From positions 1 through 21,889 of IMG/VR virus record IMGVR_UViG_3300046321_000081: a stretch of 21,889 nt of DNA. One strand, given 5' to 3'. The translations under genes and the position numbers were made by a program. How positions within the stretch are numbered: the first letter of the stretch is position 1; every line of letters starts with the position of its first letter. Below the pieces are notes generated by a model. That model ran no database searches. It was not told where the DNA came from and saw only the letters and a list, made by a program, of their open reading frames with translations. Origin of the DNA: a virus. Positions 1 to 21,889 of the stretch are shown piece after piece.

Positions 1-135
1 TCGCAGGTTGGCGGATTGCAGGTCAGCGTATCGCAGGTCAGCGTATCGCAGGTTGGCGGATTGCAGGTCAGCGTATCGCAGGTCAGCGTATCGCAGGTCA
101 GCGTATCGCAGGTTGGCGGATTGCAGGTCAGCGTT
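1..135. repeat. Nine tandem 15-bp units encoding pentapeptides
   Basis: The units are three variants: A = tcgcaggttggcgga, B = ttgcaggtcagcgta, C = tcgcaggtcagcgta. Their order is A B C A B C C A B, a 45-bp higher-order period (ABC) with one extra C; the last unit differs by one base. Near identity at the DNA level suggests recent expansion by slippage or unequal recombination. Confidence 0.95.
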
Positions 136-255
136 ATTCTTTAACCCCCACTTAACAGCAAGACCTACCTTCACGCCGTAGTCATCGCCGTCATAGTCAA
201 TTTCAGCGGTGAACTGAATTTTGCCTGTGAACCTATTTAAAATGTCGAATTTCAT
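1..255 (-). CDS. Pentapeptide-repeat protein, C-terminus cut by window edge
   Basis: Reading leftward from an ATG at 255, the first 41 residues form an N-terminal segment (FTGKIQFTAEID, then GLAVKWGLKNN) of a kind I recall from phage and prophage pentapeptide-repeat proteins. It runs straight into tandem pentapeptides of the A(D/N)LxX type (NADLQ, SANLR, YADLR), nine of them before the window ends. Such repeats fold into a right-handed beta-helix; some relatives mimic DNA and inhibit gyrase, but no such role can be assigned here. A GGAG ribosome-binding site lies about 9 nt upstream of the start, and a minus-strand promoter lies at 287-315. The gene is divergent from the head operon and looks like an independently expressed accessory gene. 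The function is unknown; the family call is secure. Confidence 0.88.
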   Translation of the reverse strand, partial: MKFDILNRFTGKIQFTAEIDYDGDDYGVKVGLAVKWGLKNNADLQSANLRYADLRYADLRYADLQSANLRYADLRYADLQSANLR

Positions 256-3495: not shown

Positions 3496-4472
3496 CAACG
3501 CTATCCGCAGCATTTCTAAAAGGCGTGTCGAATATAACAAACTCGGCGCGTCTTGCTGAAATAACAAGGGCCTTATCAATAGGCCCTGATGCGGTTATTA
3601 GTGTCCTGAATATTGAGGATGCGGCTTTTAACGATTATCGCGCGGAATTGCTAAGGATTTATGGGCAATCTGGTATTGATACTGCGGATGGGCTGCGGTT
3701 TAAATATCAAAACGGACAACGTGTAGTTGTTCGGTTTAATACTCTATCGCCGCGTGTTGAAACATATGCGCGCAATGTTATCGGCACTAAAATAACGAAT
3801 ATCACGAATGAGGCTATTTCAAACGTTCGGAATACGATTGCGGATGGTTACGCTTTGGGGCGTAGTCGTGATCGTATTGCGACCGATTTAATCGGGCGTT
3901 TGCAAGACGGTAAGCGTGTTGGCGGTGTTATCGGTATTTCAGATCAACAGCGAGTTTGGGTTAATAACATGCGCGCGGCACTGGCAACCGATCCTAAACG
4001 GGCGTTGGATTATACCAAACGAGATCGGCGGTTTGATAAGTTAATCAAGGCGTCAGTGCGCGACGGTAAGCCACTAACTATGGCGCAGATTGATCGTATC
4101 GCGTCGCAGTATTCTGACAAGCTGTTGAAGTCTAGGGGCTTGACAATTGCACGGACTGAGGCTAGTCGTGCGATTGAAGAAGGCAAGTATGAGGCTTGGA
4201 AACAGGCACTAGAAAAAACAGGTATACCTGAACAATTTGTTATTCGCACGTGGAACCATACGGGGCGCGGCGTTAAGGATAGACCGTCACATATTGCAAT
4301 GAACGGTCGGCAAGTGCGTGGGTTAACGTTGCCGTTTGTGTTAAATGACGGCACGGATATGATCACGCCTCACGATACTACTTATGGCGCGGGTGCTGAG
4401 CATATCATAAACTGCCAATGTGTTGCTGATTATTCGATTGACCGCGCGGGGGTGTTATCATGGCGCGCGTGA
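3492..4472 (+). CDS. Minor head protein, MuF/SPP1 gp7 head-morphogenesis family
   Basis: The product has 326 residues with a mainly helical N-terminal half. The middle part carries LTIARTEASRAIEEGKYEAWKQA, shown here only as a landmark around residues 218-240. The C-terminal region has the conserved family pattern: RPSHIAMNG, then D and P residues, and GAEHIINCQC just before the end. This matches the Mu gpF / SPP1 gp7 family, a minor capsid protein associated with the portal and head assembly. In most phages the gene lies beside portal; here it follows the head-closure protein and spike. It overlaps the next gene by 13 nt. The family call is good; the exact virion role is inference. Confidence 0.85.
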   Translation: MTTLSAAFLKGVSNITNSARLAEITRALSIGPDAVISVLNIEDAAFNDYRAELLRIYGQSGIDTADGLRFKYQNGQRVVVRFNTLSPRVETYARNVIGTKITNITNEAISNVRNTIADGYALGRSRDRIATDLIGRLQDGKRVGGVIGISDQQRVWVNNMRAALATDPKRALDYTKRDRRFDKLIKASVRDGKPLTMAQIDRIASQYSDKLLKSRGLTIARTEASRAIEEGKYEAWKQALEKTGIPEQFVIRTWNHTGRGVKDRPSHIAMNGRQVRGLTLPFVLNDGTDMITPHDTTYGAGAEHIINCQCVADYSIDRAGVLSWRA

Positions 4473-11883: not shown

Positions 11884-12419
11884 GCTATGTAGCAATTTTA
11901 GACACGCAATTAGAACCTGATGCGCCGTTAACGTCGCAGTTAGCATTTCAGTTGCGGGATAATCCGATTGCGATTGCGCAGGGGTTAGTAGGCGCGCCTA
12001 GGATTGCAGGCGATGCACACCCACAGTTTGCAGCGGGCGCCGTGGTTATCGATAGCCTATCGATAGATGGCGCGGATGAAATTGTATCAACAGGGGTAGT
12101 TGGAAGTGGCCCCGGGACAAAATACACCAACTATTCCTATTTTACCGCAATTCGCAGCGGCACCTTGCGGTTGACTTGTGATCTTAGGCTTACCGGAACT
12201 GCTACCTTGGCTGGCATTGCTGTTTTGGTTAACGGTGTTTTTGCATCTGGGCAAATAACTACCAGCGGGACGTATTCAAGTAAAACCATTGATTTCTCCT
12301 ACGCGGCTGGCGCGCAGGTACTTATCCGGGGGCAAGTTGATTTTACAAACGATGGCGGTAATGCAGAGGCTAGGAATATTAAAATCTGCGGCGATCAGCG
12401 CGGAACGTATCGTACATGA
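11880..12419 (+). CDS. Small tail-fibre-like protein
   Basis: The 179-residue protein begins MSYVAILDTQLEPDAPLTSQLAFQLRDNP (only partly quoted as a landmark). It then has IAIAQGLVGAPRI, a motif that recurs at the start of small tail-tip or fibre proteins in phages. The C-terminal two thirds are Gly/Thr/Ser-rich beta structure (SGTLRLTCDLRLTGTATL), consistent with a jelly-roll-like surface domain. It begins by ATGA overlap with the hub gene and ends by ATGA overlap with the first membrane gene. Receptor binding is likely but not proven. Confidence 0.6.
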   Translation: MSYVAILDTQLEPDAPLTSQLAFQLRDNPIAIAQGLVGAPRIAGDAHPQFAAGAVVIDSLSIDGADEIVSTGVVGSGPGTKYTNYSYFTAIRSGTLRLTCDLRLTGTATLAGIAVLVNGVFASGQITTSGTYSSKTIDFSYAAGAQVLIRGQVDFTNDGGNAEARNIKICGDQRGTYRT

Positions 12420-12712
12420 TAGACCTATTCACCCCCGACGACTTAAAATCAGACCCATATACGGCAGGTCTTAACCAAATGGGCCATGCGGTTCTAGGGG
12501 GCGCTGTGGCGCTGTTTCTAGGCTTGTGGGGTGGATTACTGATTATCGCATGGGAAGGCTGGCAGTTACATCGCCGTGGTGCTGTTAAGTCTGATTATTG
12601 GGCTGACTTGTGTTTTTGGGGTATTGGATTATTCTTGTTTCAATGGGTGTATTTCTTGCCACTAATCGCAGTTCTAGGGTTCGCATGGATGGTTTATCTT
12701 GACCGTAATTGA
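12416..12712 (+). CDS. Small membrane protein, unknown
   Basis: This 98-residue protein has a polar N-terminus, then NQMGHAVLGG. At least two long hydrophobic stretches follow (about residues 25-45 and 65-93), separated by the charged segment LHRRGAVKSDYWADL. The H/G and YWADL positions resemble small phage membrane proteins that I cannot name. It begins the membrane/lysis cassette and overlaps the next frame by 14 nt. A holin-type role is possible but unproven. Confidence 0.65.
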   Translation: MIDLFTPDDLKSDPYTAGLNQMGHAVLGGAVALFLGLWGGLLIIAWEGWQLHRRGAVKSDYWADLCFWGIGLFLFQWVYFLPLIAVLGFAWMVYLDRN

Positions 12713-13118
12713 TATCGACTGGGCATTGTGTGGCAAGCGTCATTCTATCGCTCGGTATCGCCCGTTGTTGATGGGCTTTCAAATCCTGCTATTTATTGCA
12801 GGTGCATTGTTTTGGTGGGAAGCTAAGACTTCTAGTGAAGCGTTCAATGTAACTCTATATGGTAGTTTTGCACTACAATATCCGGCTGAATTGTGGGCCG
12901 GGGCTATGATGGGTTTTAGCACGTTAACATGGATTGGACTAATTAAGCCTATCCGTAAAGCAATGGTTTCAGTTGGCGCAATTGGTAACGCCGTTCAATT
13001 CATGCTATTGAGTTATTCAGCGGTGTTTACAGGTGGCGAGTTTGTTATCGGTATTTTTGCCAGTTTATTATTTTTAACTCCGCATGTTTGGCTATCAATT
13101 GAGGCAGTAATTGAGTGA
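12699..13118 (+). CDS. Four-helix membrane protein, holin-like candidate
   Basis: The frame opens at TTG (12699), preceded by GGATGG; no ATG is available near the start, so the true start is uncertain. The 139-residue product has four hydrophobic segments at about residues 22-42, 55-82, 88-110 and 114-137. It has almost no soluble part. Lying between another membrane protein and a small TM/coiled-coil protein directly before the endolysin, it may take part in lysis. I recognise no family. Confidence 0.6.
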   Translation: MTVIDIDWALCGKRHSIARYRPLLMGFQILLFIAGALFWWEAKTSSEAFNVTLYGSFALQYPAELWAGAMMGFSTLTWIGLIKPIRKAMVSVGAIGNAVQFMLLSYSAVFTGGEFVIGIFASLLFLTPHVWLSIEAVIE

Positions 13119-13318
13119 CGCCAGAAGATTTCATGAAATTAGTATCCACCTACGGACTGCCCACAGCGTTGGCGGTTTTTATGGTTTGGCAGAATGTTAC
13201 TGCGAAAAAAGAGCCTACAGGTAGCGGGCAAGTCATGAGCAAGCTAGATGCGATTGATGGGCAGGTTAGGCTGTTGAGTGATCGTGTATCGCGCATGGAG
13301 GGGAAATTAGATGCTTAA
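13115..13318 (+). CDS. Short TM plus coiled-coil protein, holin/antiholin-like
   Basis: The 67-residue protein starts with GTG at 13115 (GTGA overlap with the preceding stop). It has one hydrophobic helix at about residues 11-28 (YGLPTALAVFMVW) and a heptad-like C-terminal helix (KLDAIDGQVRLLSDRVSRMEGKL). One membrane helix plus a coiled coil is common in XhlA-like or antiholin-type proteins next to endolysins. It overlaps the endolysin start. An in-frame ATG at 13133 is an alternative start. The role is inferred from topology and context. Confidence 0.6.
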   Translation: MTPEDFMKLVSTYGLPTALAVFMVWQNVTAKKEPTGSGQVMSKLDAIDGQVRLLSDRVSRMEGKLDA

Positions 13319-14009
13319 TCGAGATAAGTTTTTTGCAGATATTCGGCCTATGTTTGATGGCGGTAAAATGCGCCCAGTTCAAGTTGATGTAATTAACAAA
13401 ATTCTTGACGCTGCGGAAAGCATTAAACTGTCGTCACAAGAATTAGCATATGTTCTGGCAACTGGATTTGGTGAAAGTAAATTCACGCCAGTTCGTGAGG
13501 TTATGAATTACAGCGCCGCGCGTATTCGTGAGGTATGGCCTACACGTCCAGAGGCAGTTAGGTTTGCCCGTAAGCCGCGCGAATTGGCTAATTCTGTATA
13601 CGGCGGGCGCATGGGAAACCACGGCGGGAATGATGGGTGGGATTTCAGGGGCGGCGGTGTTTGTCAGATTACGGGGCGCGGCATGTTTGCTAAGTTCGGT
13701 CTGGAAAATGCGCCCGATAAAATTCTTGACAATGCAACGTCGGTTAAGGTCATGATTGATGGCATGGTTGGCGGTATTTTCACCGGGCATCGGTTGTCTG
13801 ATTACGCCACAAAGGGCGGTTATGATTTTATCAACGCCCGTGAAATCATTAACGGTGACGTTAAGTTGAATGGCAAGAAATACGCTGGTTATGCGATGGC
13901 GTTTTTGATTGCGATTAATTCGGCGCGGGGGATTGTTACTGAGCCGCGCGTAACAGTATTTGCGGCGATTGTCGCGGCTATTCTCCGCATTTTTAGAAAG
14001 GTTAAGTGA
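13311..14009 (+). CDS. Endolysin, GH19 chitinase/lysozyme-like
   Basis: The 232-residue protein has a GH19-like catalytic domain: LATGFGESKF with E55 as the likely acid, REVMNYSA with E63 as the likely second acid, and YGGRMGN then DGWDFRGGGVCQITGR at about 97-122. These are the standard landmarks of phage GH19 peptidoglycan hydrolases. The C-terminus (VTVFAAIVAAILRIFRKVK) is a hydrophobic/basic amphipathic helix that could help contact the membrane. No signal peptide is seen, so release depends on a holin. A strong GGAGGGG site precedes the ATG. The stop overlaps the Tad2 start. Confidence 0.88.
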   Translation: MLNRDKFFADIRPMFDGGKMRPVQVDVINKILDAAESIKLSSQELAYVLATGFGESKFTPVREVMNYSAARIREVWPTRPEAVRFARKPRELANSVYGGRMGNHGGNDGWDFRGGGVCQITGRGMFAKFGLENAPDKILDNATSVKVMIDGMVGGIFTGHRLSDYATKGGYDFINAREIINGDVKLNGKKYAGYAMAFLIAINSARGIVTEPRVTVFAAIVAAILRIFRKVK

Positions 14010-14272
14010 TGGACTTTGGCGATGCTATCCGTGCAATGAAAGACGGAAAAAGAGTTGCCCGTGAAGGGTGGAATGGAAGGGGAATGTTTTTGTTCCTAGT
14101 TAATGGATCGACATTCACTGTCAATAGAGAGCCGTTGCTTTCGATCATGGGTGAAGGCACTCAAATTCAGTATCATGCTCATATTGATATGAAAACGGCG
14201 CAAGGATATGTTGTTCCTTGGCTGGCTTCTCAATCTGATATGCTGTCAGATGATTGGCTAGAGGTGAAGTGA
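14009..14272 (+). CDS. tad2: Tad2 (DUF2829) anti-Thoeris protein homologue
   Basis: The 87-residue protein matches the DUF2829 family closely: MDFGDAIRAMKDGKRVAREGWNG at the start (a landmark, not needed in full), MFLFLV, then YHAHIDMKTAQGYVVPWLASQSD and a DW ending. This family includes Tad2, which sequesters the cyclic ADP-ribose-type signal made by the bacterial Thoeris defence and blocks ThsA activation; some members bind cyclic dinucleotides as well. I start at the ATG at 14009, with AAAGG upstream, rather than the GTG one codon earlier. It is embedded between the endolysin and small membrane genes and overlaps the endolysin stop (TGATG). The family call is strong; activity against Thoeris is predicted, not shown. 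Confidence 0.85.
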   Translation: MDFGDAIRAMKDGKRVAREGWNGRGMFLFLVNGSTFTVNREPLLSIMGEGTQIQYHAHIDMKTAQGYVVPWLASQSDMLSDDWLEVK

Positions 14273-14273
14273 T

Positions 14274-14453
14274 ATGAAGGGCTGGAAAACACTAACGGTT
14301 AATGGGCTATCGGTCGTAATCACGATTGCGGAATTGCAAGAGTGGACTACGATTATTCCCGATCAGTATTTGCCGTATTTCACGCTTGGCCTAGCACTGG
14401 CGAATATGGCGTTGCGGTTTGTTACCAATACGGCGGTCGGTTCTCGTGCGTAG
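14274..14453 (+). CDS. 59-residue membrane protein of the lysis region
   Basis: The frame starts two bases after the Tad2 stop. It encodes MKGWKTLTVNGLSVVITIAE, then EWTTIIPDQYLPYFTLGLALANMALRF (partly quoted as landmarks). The Lys/Trp start, the WTTIIP motif and two hydrophobic segments match a small membrane protein found beside holin and endolysin genes in many phages. A role in lysis is likely only by location. Its end overlaps the start of the next gene by 8 nt. Confidence 0.75.
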   Translation: MKGWKTLTVNGLSVVITIAELQEWTTIIPDQYLPYFTLGLALANMALRFVTNTAVGSRA

Positions 14454-14679
14454 ACTAACCCCCGTCCTATGGCCCATCGACTACCCTAACGGCACATATG
14501 CTGAAGGGCTGTGGATGGGGCGTGACGGGGATGCACATATGGTGTGGGCAGAAGTGCCGGATGGTTGCGGTTGGCGTCTACAGGCGGCTTGTGAAGTCAC
14601 GCGGATGCCTCATGAAAATATGTCAGAGGCTTTGCGGCGTCAACACGTGCGCATGAGTGGCGTTGATAATGTGGTTTAG
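14446..14679 (+). CDS. 77-residue protein, unknown
   Basis: The likely start is the GTG at 14446 (MRRLTPVLWPIDYPNG); an upstream TTG at 14419 in the same frame lies inside the previous gene. The product is soluble, with a beta-rich middle (GLWMGRDGDAHMVWAEV) and a charged helical end (NMSEALRRQHVRM). No family is recognised. It is tightly packed between two membrane genes and overlaps the following holin start. Confidence 0.55.
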   Translation: MRRLTPVLWPIDYPNGTYAEGLWMGRDGDAHMVWAEVPDGCGWRLQAACEVTRMPHENMSEALRRQHVRMSGVDNVV

Positions 14680-15007
14680 TTTGTTAGGCAGTATTGCTGG
14701 TAAATTGGCGGATGCTTACACGGCGCGCGAAACAGCCAAGACTGATTCGGACCGAATTGCGGCAGATGTTGCAATTAAGCAACTAGAAGCAAGGCAAGCG
14801 GTAGTGATTGCGGGCGGGCGATGGATTGCGCCAATTCAGGCCGCGTTTGCTGTTATGTTTTTGATTTATTACGGAAAACTTCTGATTTGGGATAAGGTTC
14901 TAGGGCTAGGTGTTACCGATGGATTATCGCCAAGTCTGGAAAATCTAGGCATGATTGTGATTTCTTTTATTTTCTTGCAGGCCGGGATTGACCGAGTGCG
15001 GCGGTAG
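14669..15007 (+). CDS. Holin of the GTA 3TM type
   Basis: The 112-residue protein starts MWFSLLGSIAGKLADAY. It has a charged helix around residues 18-42 (AKTDSDRIAADVAIKQLEARQ) and then hydrophobic segments at about 45-70 and 85-107 separated by IWDKVLGLGVTDGLSPS. This pattern, including the WDKVLG..VTD motif, is that of the 'holin of 3TMs, for gene-transfer release' family of alphaproteobacterial gene transfer agents and phages. I prefer the ATG at 14669 over the GTG at 14657. It would permeabilise the inner membrane for the endolysin. Confidence 0.8.
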   Translation: MWFSLLGSIAGKLADAYTARETAKTDSDRIAADVAIKQLEARQAVVIAGGRWIAPIQAAFAVMFLIYYGKLLIWDKVLGLGVTDGLSPSLENLGMIVISFIFLQAGIDRVRR

Positions 15008-15616: not shown

Positions 15617-15693
15617 GGGCCGCTAGTCCAACTGGTAGAGACATTTGCCTTAGAAGCATTGTGTTGTTGGTTCGAATCCAACGCGGCCTACCA
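15617..15693 (+). tRNA. tRNA-Leu(TAG), short variable region
   Basis: Acceptor GGGCCGC/GCGGCCT (one G-U), discriminator A and CCA encoded. The D-arm carries the GG pair, and the T-arm GTTGG-TTCGAAT-CCAAC is canonical. The anticodon loop is CTTAGAA with anticodon TAG at 15651-15653, reading CUA. The outer two pairs of the anticodon stem are mismatched. The variable region is about 5 nt, unlike normal bacterial tRNA-Leu. Confidence 0.75.
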
Positions 15694-15698
15694 AATTA

Positions 15699-15776
15699 CC
15701 CCGCCTAGCCCAAGTAGGTAGAGGCGTCGGACTTAAAATCCGAATGTTGCAGGTTCGAGTCCTGCGGTGGGGACCA
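15699..15776 (+). tRNA. tRNA-Leu(TAA), short variable region
   Basis: The cloverleaf is complete: acceptor CCCCGCC/GGTGGGG, D-stem GCC/GGC, anticodon arm TCGGA-CTTAAAA-TCCGA (anticodon TAA at 15734-15736, reading UUA), T-arm GCAGG-TTCGAGT-CCTGC, discriminator A and encoded CCA. The variable region is only 5 nt, though tRNA-Leu is normally class II. Confidence 0.88.
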
Positions 15777-15781
15777 ATATT

Positions 15782-15855
15782 GTCGGTGTAGTGTAGTGGT
15801 AACACGGCAGTCTCCAAAACTGCAATTATAGGTTCAATTCCTATCACCCTCGCCA
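15782..15855 (+). tRNA. tRNA-Trp(CCA)
   Basis: Anticodon arm GCAGT-CTCCAAA-ACTGC is perfect, with anticodon CCA at 15814-15816. The D-arm reads GTGTAGTGGTAACAC, the T-arm ATAGG-TTCAATT-CCTAT. The discriminator is G, as in bacterial tRNA-Trp, and CCA is encoded. The acceptor stem has two mismatches (positions 2-71 and 3-70). Confidence 0.82.
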
Positions 15856-19182: not shown

Positions 19183-19374
19183 TCAGGCGGTCTTAAAACC
19201 ACTTACCAACATACTGCACAAATCCTCAAATCCATCAGATCCGCGCAAGCACACTAGTCCCTTTTCGTTTTTGTATGCCTCATACGACTGGCATTGTTTG
19301 TATCCCGGCGACTTAGAAACTGTGCAGGTGTATAAAACACCTGCAACAAATTCAAACTTCGGTTTATCTGCCAT
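19183..19374 (-). CDS. 63-residue cysteine-containing protein, unknown
   Basis: The ATG at 19374 overlaps the DnaN stop (TGATG). The product MADKPKFEFVAGVLYTCTVS then SPGYKQCQSYEAY has four cysteines (VLYTC, KQC, GLVC, DLC) spread along a short protein, which could bind a metal. It is translated by coupling with the clamp gene and ends at the terminator hairpin. The function is unknown; a clamp partner is conceivable from context only. Confidence 0.65.
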   Translation of the reverse strand: MADKPKFEFVAGVLYTCTVSKSPGYKQCQSYEAYKNEKGLVCLRGSDGFEDLCSMLVSGFKTA

Positions 19375-20462
19375 CACGTCACACGAAGTGGCATAACGAC
19401 GAATAACACCCCAGTATCATCGCTAGGCAAAATCACAATAGGATCACCCACGCCGCCTAGCTTGACTGTAACATCATCGCCGTTACATAGCGTCAAGCAT
19501 TCTGCCAAGTATTTAGCGTTAACACCAATAGCCATGTGGTCGCCGTTGTATTCGTAGTCAACGTTATCTTCGGCTTCGTTACCGTGTTCACCGCCAACGG
19601 TTAGCACTAGCTGCGCGCCGCCTACAGCGATCTTTACCGCGCGAACTCGATCAGTAGCTACCAAAGACACGCGATTAGCCGCAATCTTCATAGCCGACGC
19701 ACTGGCAGTGAATACGTTGCGGTTATTCTGCGGAATAACACGGGTATAATCTGGAAACGTGCCATCGATAACCTTTGACACAACAGTAGTGCTGCCGTGC
19801 TGAAAGCGGATCTTAGTAGCGCTAACCGATACAGATACATCGCCAATATCAGATAGCCCGCCGATCAACAAAACGGTTTTTGACGGCACAATAACCCCAT
19901 CAAACTCGCCCGCATGTCCAGAGTATTCCGCCAATGCAAGACGATGCCCATCAGTGGACACGGTTTTCAGAGCGCCATCCGCATGGTGCATATATACGCC
20001 TTGCAGGTAATAGCGGGTTTCTTCGGTAGACATTGCGCCTTTTGTTTTATCGAATAGCCGTTTAAATTCGACAGACGGCAAGTCAAACTCATTGGCGTAT
20101 TCGTTTGATGCCATAACGGGGTAATCAGCCGCCGATAGTGTTGCAAGCGTGGTTTTAAACCGTCCTGCCTTAATCGTTAGTTTATGATCGGCCAGTGACA
20201 TATCAACCAACGACCCGGCTGGCAAAGACTTCACAATGTCAAAAAACATTGCGGCGTTAACAGTTGTTTCGCCCGATTGATTTACGTTAGCCGCGCAACT
20301 ACCTGTGATTTCAATATCAAGATCGGTTGCGCGCGCCTGTAGCGTATCCGTTGCTGATAGAACAATATTAGCAAGGATTGGAATGGTGTTTTTACGATTA
20401 ACTACCGGGATAAGTTTTGCCAGTAGGTTAATTAGGTCTTGGCGTTCTGTGGTTAGTTGCAT
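19374..20462 (-). CDS. dnaN: DNA polymerase III sliding clamp (beta subunit)
   Basis: The 362-residue product matches the bacterial beta clamp over its length: the start (QLTTERQDLINLLAKLIPVV), NTIPILANIVL and ATDLDIEI in domain I, YYLQGVYMHH and STDGHRLALAEY in domain II, VIDGTFPDYTRVIP in the middle, ATDRVRAVKIAV, and a C-terminus VVMPLRVT (cf. the usual 'MPMRL'). The clamp encircles DNA and tethers polymerase. A phage copy suggests its own replisome or takeover of the host one. AGGAG lies 7 nt upstream. Confidence 0.95.
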   Translation of the reverse strand: MQLTTERQDLINLLAKLIPVVNRKNTIPILANIVLSATDTLQARATDLDIEITGSCAANVNQSGETTVNAAMFFDIVKSLPAGSLVDMSLADHKLTIKAGRFKTTLATLSAADYPVMASNEYANEFDLPSVEFKRLFDKTKGAMSTEETRYYLQGVYMHHADGALKTVSTDGHRLALAEYSGHAGEFDGVIVPSKTVLLIGGLSDIGDVSVSVSATKIRFQHGSTTVVSKVIDGTFPDYTRVIPQNNRNVFTASASAMKIAANRVSLVATDRVRAVKIAVGGAQLVLTVGGEHGNEAEDNVDYEYNGDHMAIGVNAKYLAECLTLCNGDDVTVKLGGVGDPIVILPSDDTGVLFVVMPLRVT

Positions 20463-20707: not shown

Positions 20708-20865
20708 CCCCAAAAACCTCCCCAATACAAGATTGCCACATTAATTGCCACTCCAATCAATTGTTCCCAAATACTGTATACTCCACGCGGTTGCCCATTT
20801 TTAGACGCAACAACGCCAAATCCGATTGCCCATAGAACAATCAACGTAATCTGCGGGTAGTCCAT
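20704..20865 (-). CDS. 53-residue two-helix membrane protein
   Basis: The product starts MDYPQITLIVLWAIGFGVVA, has a short polar loop (SKNGQPRGVYS), and ends in a second hydrophobic helix, LIGVAINVAILYWGGFWG. This start (PQIT.IVL), loop and YxGGF ending match a small membrane protein found in many phage replication operons; its role is unknown. It starts in TGATG overlap with ThyX. Confidence 0.75.
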   Translation of the reverse strand: MDYPQITLIVLWAIGFGVVASKNGQPRGVYSIWEQLIGVAINVAILYWGGFWG

Positions 20866-21638
20866 CACAAAATATCCCCTTCTACATATGCCGCGTAACT
20901 CACTGGAAACGCCTGCTTTACCTTATCAGCAATCAGTCCAGCAAGCAAGCGCGTTTGTGATTGAGTATGCGGATCGAGCCGCATCTTTAGCATATTCATA
21001 AACGCATCCAAGCTACCCGACCAACGCCACCGCGTCATGTGGCACAATGGCAACACCATTCGCGCCTCCTCTGGGGCAACTGATTTCAGCAAATATTGAT
21101 AGGCATCGTCTGCCATATTGACAGCATCGAGCCATGCGTCATTGGCTAATTCTTGACCTTGATCATCTAGCCAATCACCCGCGCCTTGCTTCACATTATC
21201 AGCAATGCCGCTCCAGTTATCTGGCTTGAAGTAAACAGGTTCGCCTTTGATATAGCGACGGCTAACTTCACTCATGCGAAGGTATTCGTGTTTTACCATT
21301 TGGCGAGCAACAAAAACAGGGGCTTCAACTGTGAATTTCAGGAATCCGTGTCCAAACGGCGCGGCATGTGGTGCAGCGGATTTAAATTTCCACAAATTTG
21401 CAGGCGTAGGATTTGCAAGGATTTCAAGATATTCAGACTTAGGCATACCGCGAACTAGGTATTTAATCAGATCAGCTTGTGCATCGGTTAGAATAGGTTG
21501 TTTCCGCGATACGCATTCAAGATCAATGTCATACCATCCTTTCGGTTCGACACTTACGTCATTGTTATATGATACCTTGGCGTCCTTGACCACTTCTAGG
21601 TCATTGCCCATTACGTCGTTTAGTGTTACAGTGATCAT
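20865..21638 (-). CDS. thyX: FAD-dependent thymidylate synthase ThyX
   Basis: The 257-residue protein converts dUMP to dTMP. The start is the ATG at 21638 with AGGGAG upstream; a 24-residue upstream extension to 21710 is probably not translated. The signature region is residues 113-129 (QMVKHEYLRMSEVSRRY). It matches the ThyX motif RHRx7S except that RHR is replaced by K116-H117-E118; S126 and the following RRY are present. The C-terminal part keeps VLPLCHMTRWRWSGSL and MRLDPHTQSQTR. Phage enzymes often vary at RHR (KHQ-like forms), so activity is still likely. It probably supports phage DNA synthesis together with DnaN. Confidence 0.88.
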   Translation of the reverse strand: MITVTLNDVMGNDLEVVKDAKVSYNNDVSVEPKGWYDIDLECVSRKQPILTDAQADLIKYLVRGMPKSEYLEILANPTPANLWKFKSAAPHAAPFGHGFLKFTVEAPVFVARQMVKHEYLRMSEVSRRYIKGEPVYFKPDNWSGIADNVKQGAGDWLDDQGQELANDAWLDAVNMADDAYQYLLKSVAPEEARMVLPLCHMTRWRWSGSLDAFMNMLKMRLDPHTQSQTRLLAGLIADKVKQAFPVSYAAYVEGDIL

Positions 21639-21889
21639 TTCGTCAACTCCCTTTTCAATAGCTTTTCTATACCATGGTCGATAATAATGCGCAATAGCAT
21701 ATCCATGCAATCGGCTAATTCATTGCATTCTTGACATAAGCCGCGCGTTATGTCAGGTTTTCGCGGTTTTGTTGACATGGCGAGCGCGTGGTGGTATAGT
21801 TTGCGGGCGCGATGAACTTGCGGGGATAGCTGGATGAAGCCCCGGACAGGCCCGTTGATATTGCATGGTATAGGCGTGCCATATGGATT
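21635..21889 (-). CDS. Partial protein with CQEC..C motif at the right edge
   Basis: A minus-strand frame is open from the window edge to a TGA that overlaps the ThyX start (ATGA at 21635-21638), 84 codons. It has a basic middle (VHRARKLYHHALAM, STKPRKPD), GLCQECNELADC (possible metal site) and an amphipathic helix, LLRIIIDHGIEKLLKREL. If the start lies outside the window it is the first visible gene of the operon; a start at 21778 lacks a ribosome-binding site. A near-consensus plus-strand promoter inside it (21772-21800) weakens the case. Confidence 0.5.
   Translation of the reverse strand, partial: NPYGTPIPCNINGPVRGFIQLSPQVHRARKLYHHALAMSTKPRKPDITRGLCQECNELADCMDMLLRIIIDHGIEKLLKRELTK
21666..21694 (-). 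promoter_or_regulatory. Possible minus-strand promoter before thyX
   Basis: TTGCGC (21694-21689), 17 nt and TATAGA (21671-21666) on the minus strand, 27 nt before the ThyX ATG. It would give ThyX and the clamp operon their own promoter. Confidence 0.4.
21772..21800 (+). promoter_or_regulatory. Near-consensus plus-strand promoter
   Basis: TTGACA, exactly 17 nt, TATAGT. It reads toward the right edge, where a short frame from 21834 runs out of the window. Either a rightward operon starts here or the match is an antisense promoter within the minus-strand gene. Confidence 0.5.

What the first reader, a model, noticed from the sequence alone, without database searches (positions are those of the whole stretch)
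14009..14272. Tad2-family anti-Thoeris gene inside the lysis cassette
Directly visible: an 87-residue protein with the DUF2829 pattern (AREGWNG, MFLFLV, YHAHIDMKTA, VPWLASQSD). Established: Tad2 of this family binds the Thoeris signalling nucleotide, and some members bind cyclic dinucleotides. Inference: this phage meets Thoeris or CBASS-like defence. The placement, coupled to endolysin and holin-type genes expressed late, is odd for an anti-defence protein that should act early.
Basis: partly seen in the sequence, partly recalled or inferred. Interest (0 to 1): 0.75.

Follow-up and report, generated by a model that had tools for sequence, protein, structure and literature searches.

The report
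Tad2-family sponge in phage lysis operon
A phage carries a small protein of a known family that soaks up bacterial alarm molecules, and the gene sits among the genes that burst the cell, which fits an alarm that is triggered late by the phage's own shell protein.

Summary
Window 14009-14272 (+) encodes an 87-aa protein that matches Pfam PF11195 (Tad2-like) at 92.9 bits against a cut-off of 25. The predicted monomer (pLDDT 95.6) matches only solved Tad2 structures at high score. The parts described as the ligand pocket hold most of its invariant residues.

The placement is also real: endolysin stop and Tad2 start share a base, inside a run of overlapping small genes. But it is not odd in the way proposed. 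Published work shows Thoeris triggered by the phage major capsid protein (PMC12578639), so a late sponge is timely. Some relatives sit by terminase, portal and head genes.

What is new is modest. In this phage group 6 of 8 cassettes found through a neighbouring gene hold a Tad2 gene, at two junctions and from two Tad2 lineages that a tree test does not let form one clade. One relative shows the empty site.

CBASS is less likely: the cyclic-dinucleotide insertion is missing. Ligand and timing are untested. New member of a known family.

The parts
14009..14272 (+). Tad2-family (PF11195, formerly DUF2829) protein, 87 aa
13311..14009 (+). endolysin (phrog_181; GH19-like by its relative in L122, PF00182 E 0.00036, below Pfam's cut-off); stop TGA shares its A with the ATG of Tad2
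13960..14009 (+). endolysin C-terminal tail DNA, shared with relatives whose catalytic domain is unrelated (PF00959 lysozyme)
13115..13318 (+). 67-aa cassette gene, overlaps the endolysin start; no family match
12699..13118 (+). 139-aa (or 115 aa from ATG 12771) hydrophobic protein; holin-type by position only
12416..12712 (+). 98-aa hydrophobic protein, conserved in the cassette of relatives
14274..14453 (+). 59-aa small protein; sub-threshold DUF7940 match; replaced by an unrelated 59-aa protein in L002/L003/L004
14446..14679 (+). 77-aa protein of unknown function, GTG start (in place of the TTG start of the ORF list)
14657..15007 (+). 112-116-aa protein (start 14669 ATG or 14657 GTG) with hydrophobic stretch; holin-like by position; used as the anchor for the cassette search

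Best explanation
It is a working Tad2-family nucleotide sponge, made late from the lysis operon. Likely working: the protein forms the Tad2 tetramer and holds a TIR-made ADP-ribose signal (cyclic ADPR type somewhat more likely than His-ADPR) in two pockets. That stops the Thoeris effector from emptying the cell of NAD+ in the time between capsid build-up, which triggers Thoeris, and planned lysis. Shown: family, monomer fold (predicted), kept pocket residues, strong purifying selection, overlapping start and stop with the endolysin, and recurrent residence of Tad2 genes in this cassette. Inferred: tetramer, ligand, late transcription, and that the host has Thoeris.
For: PF11195 92.9 bits. All 24 Foldseek hits with E<0.001 are Tad2 chains. 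VIA-align Z 10.3-11.9 for Tad2, next row Z 5.1. Invariant in 49 of 49 aligned relatives: R18 (end of b1), W21, N22, G23 (loop b1-b2), W71, S74 (before a3), Q75, D77, L79 (a3), the elements PMC12043709 names as pocket. Purifying selection: window against L002 pS 0.63, pN 0.039, pN/pS 0.06, the lowest of the four cassette genes compared for that pair (others 0.19-0.36). Overlapping start/stop. Late trigger: capsid protein activates Thoeris. Tad2 present in 6 of 8 cassettes, window included, that share the downstream gene at 71% or more.
Against: No expression data; no known host. Thoeris in bacteria that carry close Tad2 relatives is not shown: ThsB_TIR matches in 7 of 14 genomes, several in long reading frames, and ThsA_Macro in 0 of 14 with a silent control. 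The best structural match is ModTad2, a His-ADPR binder, which differs at Q75 (V there). The gene is absent from 2 of 8 close cassettes and from all 28 distant ones, so it is not needed for lysis.
Confidence: 0.7

Rival explanations
1. Passenger ('moron') reading: a functional Tad2 that landed in the cassette because this is a permissive recombination spot; its place has no bearing on timing, and it could also be expressed at other times.
For: The cassette is very mosaic: two endolysin types, two 59-aa proteins, Tad2 at either of two junctions. Relatives sit in many places, including by replication genes in MW202475, MW202665 and ON602745.
Against: Scarless, overlapping junctions tie it to endolysin translation in the window, L002 and L003. 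Two Tad2 lineages ended up at the same junction. Promoter scan shows no + strand site from 13100 to 14009; the scan as a whole (9 sites against a shuffle mean of 4.7) is weak evidence either way.
Confidence: 0.4
2. It sponges His-ADPR and blocks type II Thoeris, like ModTad2.
For: ModTad2 is the best PDB match by sequence and fold and has the same short middle (42 against 44 residues). PMC13299392 states that MoTad2 binds His-ADPR (passages).
Against: The second pocket motif is WLASQSD, like HgmTad2 (WLASQTD) and SPO1 (WVPSQTD), not ModTad2 (WTPSVSD). In the tree ModTad2 is a long branch in no supported place.
Confidence: 0.3
3. It sponges cyclic dinucleotides and blocks CBASS-like defence.
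For: Other Tad2 proteins bind them (PMC12043709; PDB titles 8wjd, 8kbk). The long Tad2 of L124 in the same slot has a middle of SptTad2 length (53 and 54).
Against: The window protein lacks that insertion (44 residues); SPO1 Tad2 of the short kind does not bind 3'3'-cGAMP.
Confidence: 0.1
4. The gene is a decayed or accidental ORF.
For: None found.
Against: pN/pS 0.06-0.19 at high synonymous divergence; 92.9-bit family match.
Confidence: 0.01

Closest known systems
ModTad2 (Myroides odoratus prophage; PDB 8v3e, 9eib)
   Same: Fold, length of the middle (42 against 44), first pocket loop REGWNGKGM against REGWNGRGM
   Different: Second pocket motif WTPSVSDIL against WLASQSDML; gene context not examined here
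SPO1 Tad2 (gp34.65; PDB 8sme, 8smf, 8smg)
   Same: Fold, short middle (42), SQ(T/S)D motif
   Different: Gene lies in a run of small genes without an annotated lysis gene next door
HgmTad2/AcrIIA7 and SptTad2 (8kbi-8kbm, 8wjd)
   Same: Fold and second pocket motif WLASQTDM
   Different: Carry a longer middle (60 and 54) linked to cyclic-dinucleotide binding; the window protein does not
Tad2-like P015 of Sinorhizobium phage AP-20-A (PMC13299392, passages)
   Same: PF11195 protein in a phage
   Different: 97 aa with a longer domain; context not compared here

Membership tests
Tad2 (PF11195) | Profile match over the curated cut-off across the domain | tested here: met
   92.9 bits, cut-off 25, profile 1-72 of 73
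Tad2 (PF11195) | Tad2 fold of the protomer | tested here: met
   Model pLDDT 95.6; Foldseek and VIA-align match only Tad2 chains at high score
Tad2 (PF11195) | Residues in the pocket loops kept | tested here: met
   R18, W21, N22, G23, W71, S74, Q75, D77 invariant in 49 of 49 rows; loops assigned from the text of PMC12043709, not from coordinates of a complex
Tad2 (PF11195) | Homotetramer with two ligand pockets | not testable with these tools
   Only single chains can be predicted
Tad2 (PF11195) | Binds a TIR-derived signal and blocks Thoeris | not testable with these tools
   Needs binding and plaque assays
CDN-binding Tad2 subgroup | Long insertion between b2 and b5 | tested here: not met
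   44 residues between pocket motifs against 60 (HgmTad2) and 54 (SptTad2)
Phage lysis cassette | Endolysin gene in the same overlapping gene run | tested here: met
   phrog_181 E 5.6e-34, shared base at 14009
Phage lysis cassette | Holin or spanin gene in the run | tested here: inconclusive
   Small hydrophobic proteins without a family match

The most novel reading that the evidence does not exclude
In this phage group the lysis cassette is a dedicated slot for swapping signal sponges. Tad2 genes of different lineages, one with the short middle and one with a longer middle of SptTad2 length, were placed separately next to the endolysin, so that the phage meets a late, capsid-triggered alarm with a sponge made together with the lysis genes and changes ligand range by exchanging the gene at one site.
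Probability: 0.3. Interest if true: 0.55.

Novelty: new member of a known kind. Interest (0 to 1): 0.36.

Why it matters
It suggests that a nucleotide sponge need not be an early gene. If the trigger of Thoeris is the capsid protein, a sponge made with the lysis genes is in time, so searches for anti-defence genes should include late operons. The cassette, with filled and empty relatives and two Tad2 lineages in one slot, is a compact system for testing timing and ligand range.

Tried and rejected
Recent transfer of the Tad2 block: the DNA block 13960-14266 is 85% identical to L002/L003 while the long flanking blocks are about 73-75%, which suggested a recent exchange. Four-fold sites and Nei-Gojobori counts speak against it: Tad2 differs at 0.57-0.74 of four-fold sites, as much as or more than the neighbours (0.43-0.67). 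The higher identity is amino-acid conservation.

A general link of Tad2 with lysis: not found. In the Tad2-anchored set (79 loci with a called Tad2 gene, window included; L031 and L033 dropped because the gene caller missed the gene, L001 dropped as a copy of the window) a gene of the two endolysin clusters lies within three genes in 7 of 79 (window, L002-L005, L038, L066), five of them the window's own group. In the second set, 1 of 77 (L209) within four genes by the same seeds (L172, L174, L211 dropped). Other endolysin types would be missed. In 14 annotated phage records that I picked by hand from 40 listed (357 matching), none has an annotated endolysin or holin in the stretch; MT270409 has an rIIB lysis inhibitor two genes upstream.

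Thoeris in carriers: inconclusive (14 of the 15 loci were given, L096 left out). 'Tandem Tad2 copies' in 22 of 80 loci: not trustworthy, because single-linkage clustering merged Tad2 with other small proteins; the six second genes that I printed (L159, L160, L162, L167, L169, L177) do not read as Tad2. N-terminal extensions of long Tad2 proteins: no Pfam domain over its cut-off besides Tad2. Host: no near phage; tail protein relatives under 60% identity.

Literature: the three primary papers I asked for by DOI are not held, so pocket residues rest on a review. I saw passages of PMC12043709, PMC11722364, PMC13299392 and PMC12578639, and otherwise search listings. Those listings showed no title on Tad2 in lysis cassettes; this is not a proof of absence.

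Full report
Observation. The ORF at 14009-14272 (+) translates as stated. It matches PF11195 Tad2-like at 92.9 bits, PHROGs of unknown function and the solved Tad2 proteins. AlphaFold2 on an alignment of 49 rows gives pLDDT 95.6, pTM 0.80. Foldseek finds 24 chains with E below 0.001, all Tad2, led by ModTad2 with His-ADPR. VIA-align gives Z 11.9 for 8v3e and Z 5.1 for the first non-Tad2 entry. Membership in the family is settled as far as sequence and predicted monomer fold can settle it.

Pocket. A review (PMC12043709, passages) places the gcADPR pocket at loop b1-b2, loop b3-b4 and strand b4 of one protomer, and loop b1-b2, loop b4-a3 and helix a3 of another. I assign residues 19-26 of the model to loop b1-b2, 71-74 to the loop before a3 and 75-79 to a3 (secondary structure). 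Invariant columns in 49 of 49 relatives are F3, R18, W21, N22, G23, W71, S74, Q75, D77, L79, D82 and W83, so most lie there or next to it. The second pocket motif is WLASQSDML, nearest to HgmTad2 (WLASQTDML) and unlike ModTad2 (WTPSVSDIL); the stretch between the motifs is 44 residues, like SPO1 (42) and ModTad2 (42), not like HgmTad2 (60) and SptTad2 (54), which were solved with cGG. My reading is an ADP-ribose-type ligand, gcADPR somewhat more likely than His-ADPR. This is inference.

Gene context. From 12416 to 15007 the cassette genes are on the + strand with overlaps or a one-base gap. The endolysin TGA and the Tad2 ATG share the A at 14009. A purine-rich AGAAAGG lies upstream of the start. 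No promoter-like site lies on the + strand between 13100 and 14009, and the scan as a whole says little. The endolysin matches phrog_181. The other small genes match no lysis family; four have hydrophobic stretches.

Is the placement conserved? I anchored a second search on the downstream 116-aa gene, so that the result does not depend on Tad2 (35 contigs). Counting the window, 8 cassettes share that gene at 71% identity or more; 6 hold Tad2 (window, L119 = contig of L002, L121 = contig of L003, L120 = contig of L005, L123, L124) and 2 do not (L118, L122). None of the other 28 contigs, at 51% identity or less, has a Tad2 match in the stretch held; some of these stretches are short. A search anchored on the 98-aa gene gave 6 contigs, of which only the L005 contig has Tad2. 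A search with the 77-aa gene gave 5, all known contigs, 4 of them with Tad2. L004, found by Tad2 itself, has the cassette too.

The slot. In the window, L002 and L003 Tad2 follows the endolysin. In L004 and L005 it follows the 59-aa gene. In L123 and L124 it again follows the endolysin but is 49% identical to the window protein, and the L124 protein has a longer middle (53 residues). In the tree of 85 rows the window protein falls in a group of 15 rows with support 99/98, while L123 and L124 group with L159 and L160 (93/76). Forcing the seven cassette-borne Tad2 proteins into one clade is rejected (AU p 3.1e-6; lnL lower by 107); the five short ones as a clade are not rejected (p 0.355). The tree has only 91 columns and several long branches, and I named the group after seeing the alignment, so this is good but not final evidence for at least two placements. 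L118 shows the empty site: the endolysin tail runs straight into the 59-aa gene, with bases like those that flank Tad2 in the window.

Endolysin exchange. The window endolysin and the L002 endolysin have unrelated catalytic domains (phrog_181 against PF00959), yet share the last 50 bases before Tad2. The simplest reading is that the catalytic part was swapped while the tail and Tad2 stayed together.

Selection. Between window and L002 Tad2 has pS 0.63 and pN 0.039; pN/pS is 0.06, compared with 0.19 (downstream gene), 0.36 (77-aa gene) and 0.23 (98-aa gene). Against L005 the contrast is smaller: Tad2 0.19, against 0.18, 0.22, 0.20 and 0.13 for the others. Synonymous sites are as diverged as in the neighbours, so it looks like an old resident kept by purifying selection.

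Timing. In PMC12578639 (passages) the major head protein is necessary for activation of the staphylococcal Thoeris system, and deletion of rinA, needed for transcription of the structural genes, abolishes activation; streptococcal Thoeris also recognises capsid proteins. A sponge made with late genes therefore meets the signal when it appears. Relatives fit this: at least 19 of 79 loci of the first set have a terminase, portal, head-tail adaptor or internal virion gene within three genes (my union of clusters 1, 2, 7, 15, 16, 26 and 60, named; clusters that I did not name are not counted), and 5 of the 14 annotated phage stretches show terminase, portal or capsid genes. Others lie by replication genes, so there is no rule, and I have no background rate for comparison. 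Whether other Thoeris systems are triggered by capsids is not known to me.

Verdict. A real, conserved Tad2-family gene, most likely a Thoeris sponge made late. Known family; the repeated use of one lysis cassette is a modest new observation for this phage group.

Noticed in passing
window 13960-14009; L002, L003, L004, L005, L118: Endolysins with unrelated catalytic domains share a C-terminal tail of about 16 residues (AAILRxFxxK type) and its DNA; a similar amphipathic-looking tail ends the L122, L123 and L124 endolysins. It looks like a fixed tail on exchangeable enzymes.
   Followed up: partly
window 15617-15855: Three tRNA genes in a row after the lysis cassette: Leu(TAG), Leu(TAA), Trp(CCA).
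   Followed up: no
window 19374-20462 and 20865-21710, - strand: Beta-clamp-like processivity factor (phrog_947) and ThyX (PF02511) on the opposite strand.
   Followed up: partly
window 8-181: Left end of the contig reads as a short repeat (peptide CRSAYRRSAYRR...), perhaps an assembly artefact.
   Followed up: no
L159, L160, L162, L169: A small protein with FRKKPVVIEA or YRKKPVTIEA near its start lies next to or near Tad2 in several loci; a possible recurrent partner.
   Followed up: no
L010, L019, L029, L032, L050, L058, L066, L233: Tad2 domains at the C-terminus of 160-290-aa predicted proteins with an N-terminal part that matches no Pfam family above its cut-off; start codons may be over-extended, but phrog_1048 also has the domain at 110-195 of 211.
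   Followed up: partly
L105 (Pectobacterium phage Momine, MH807816) 3501-3776: Tad2 lies directly upstream of a very large gene annotated 'diguanylate cyclase/phosphodiesterase'; the label may be wrong, but some Tad2 proteins bind cyclic di-GMP.
   Followed up: no
window 14274-14453; L002 6267-6446: The 59-aa gene beside Tad2 exists as two unrelated types of equal length that replace each other in the cassette.
   Followed up: partly
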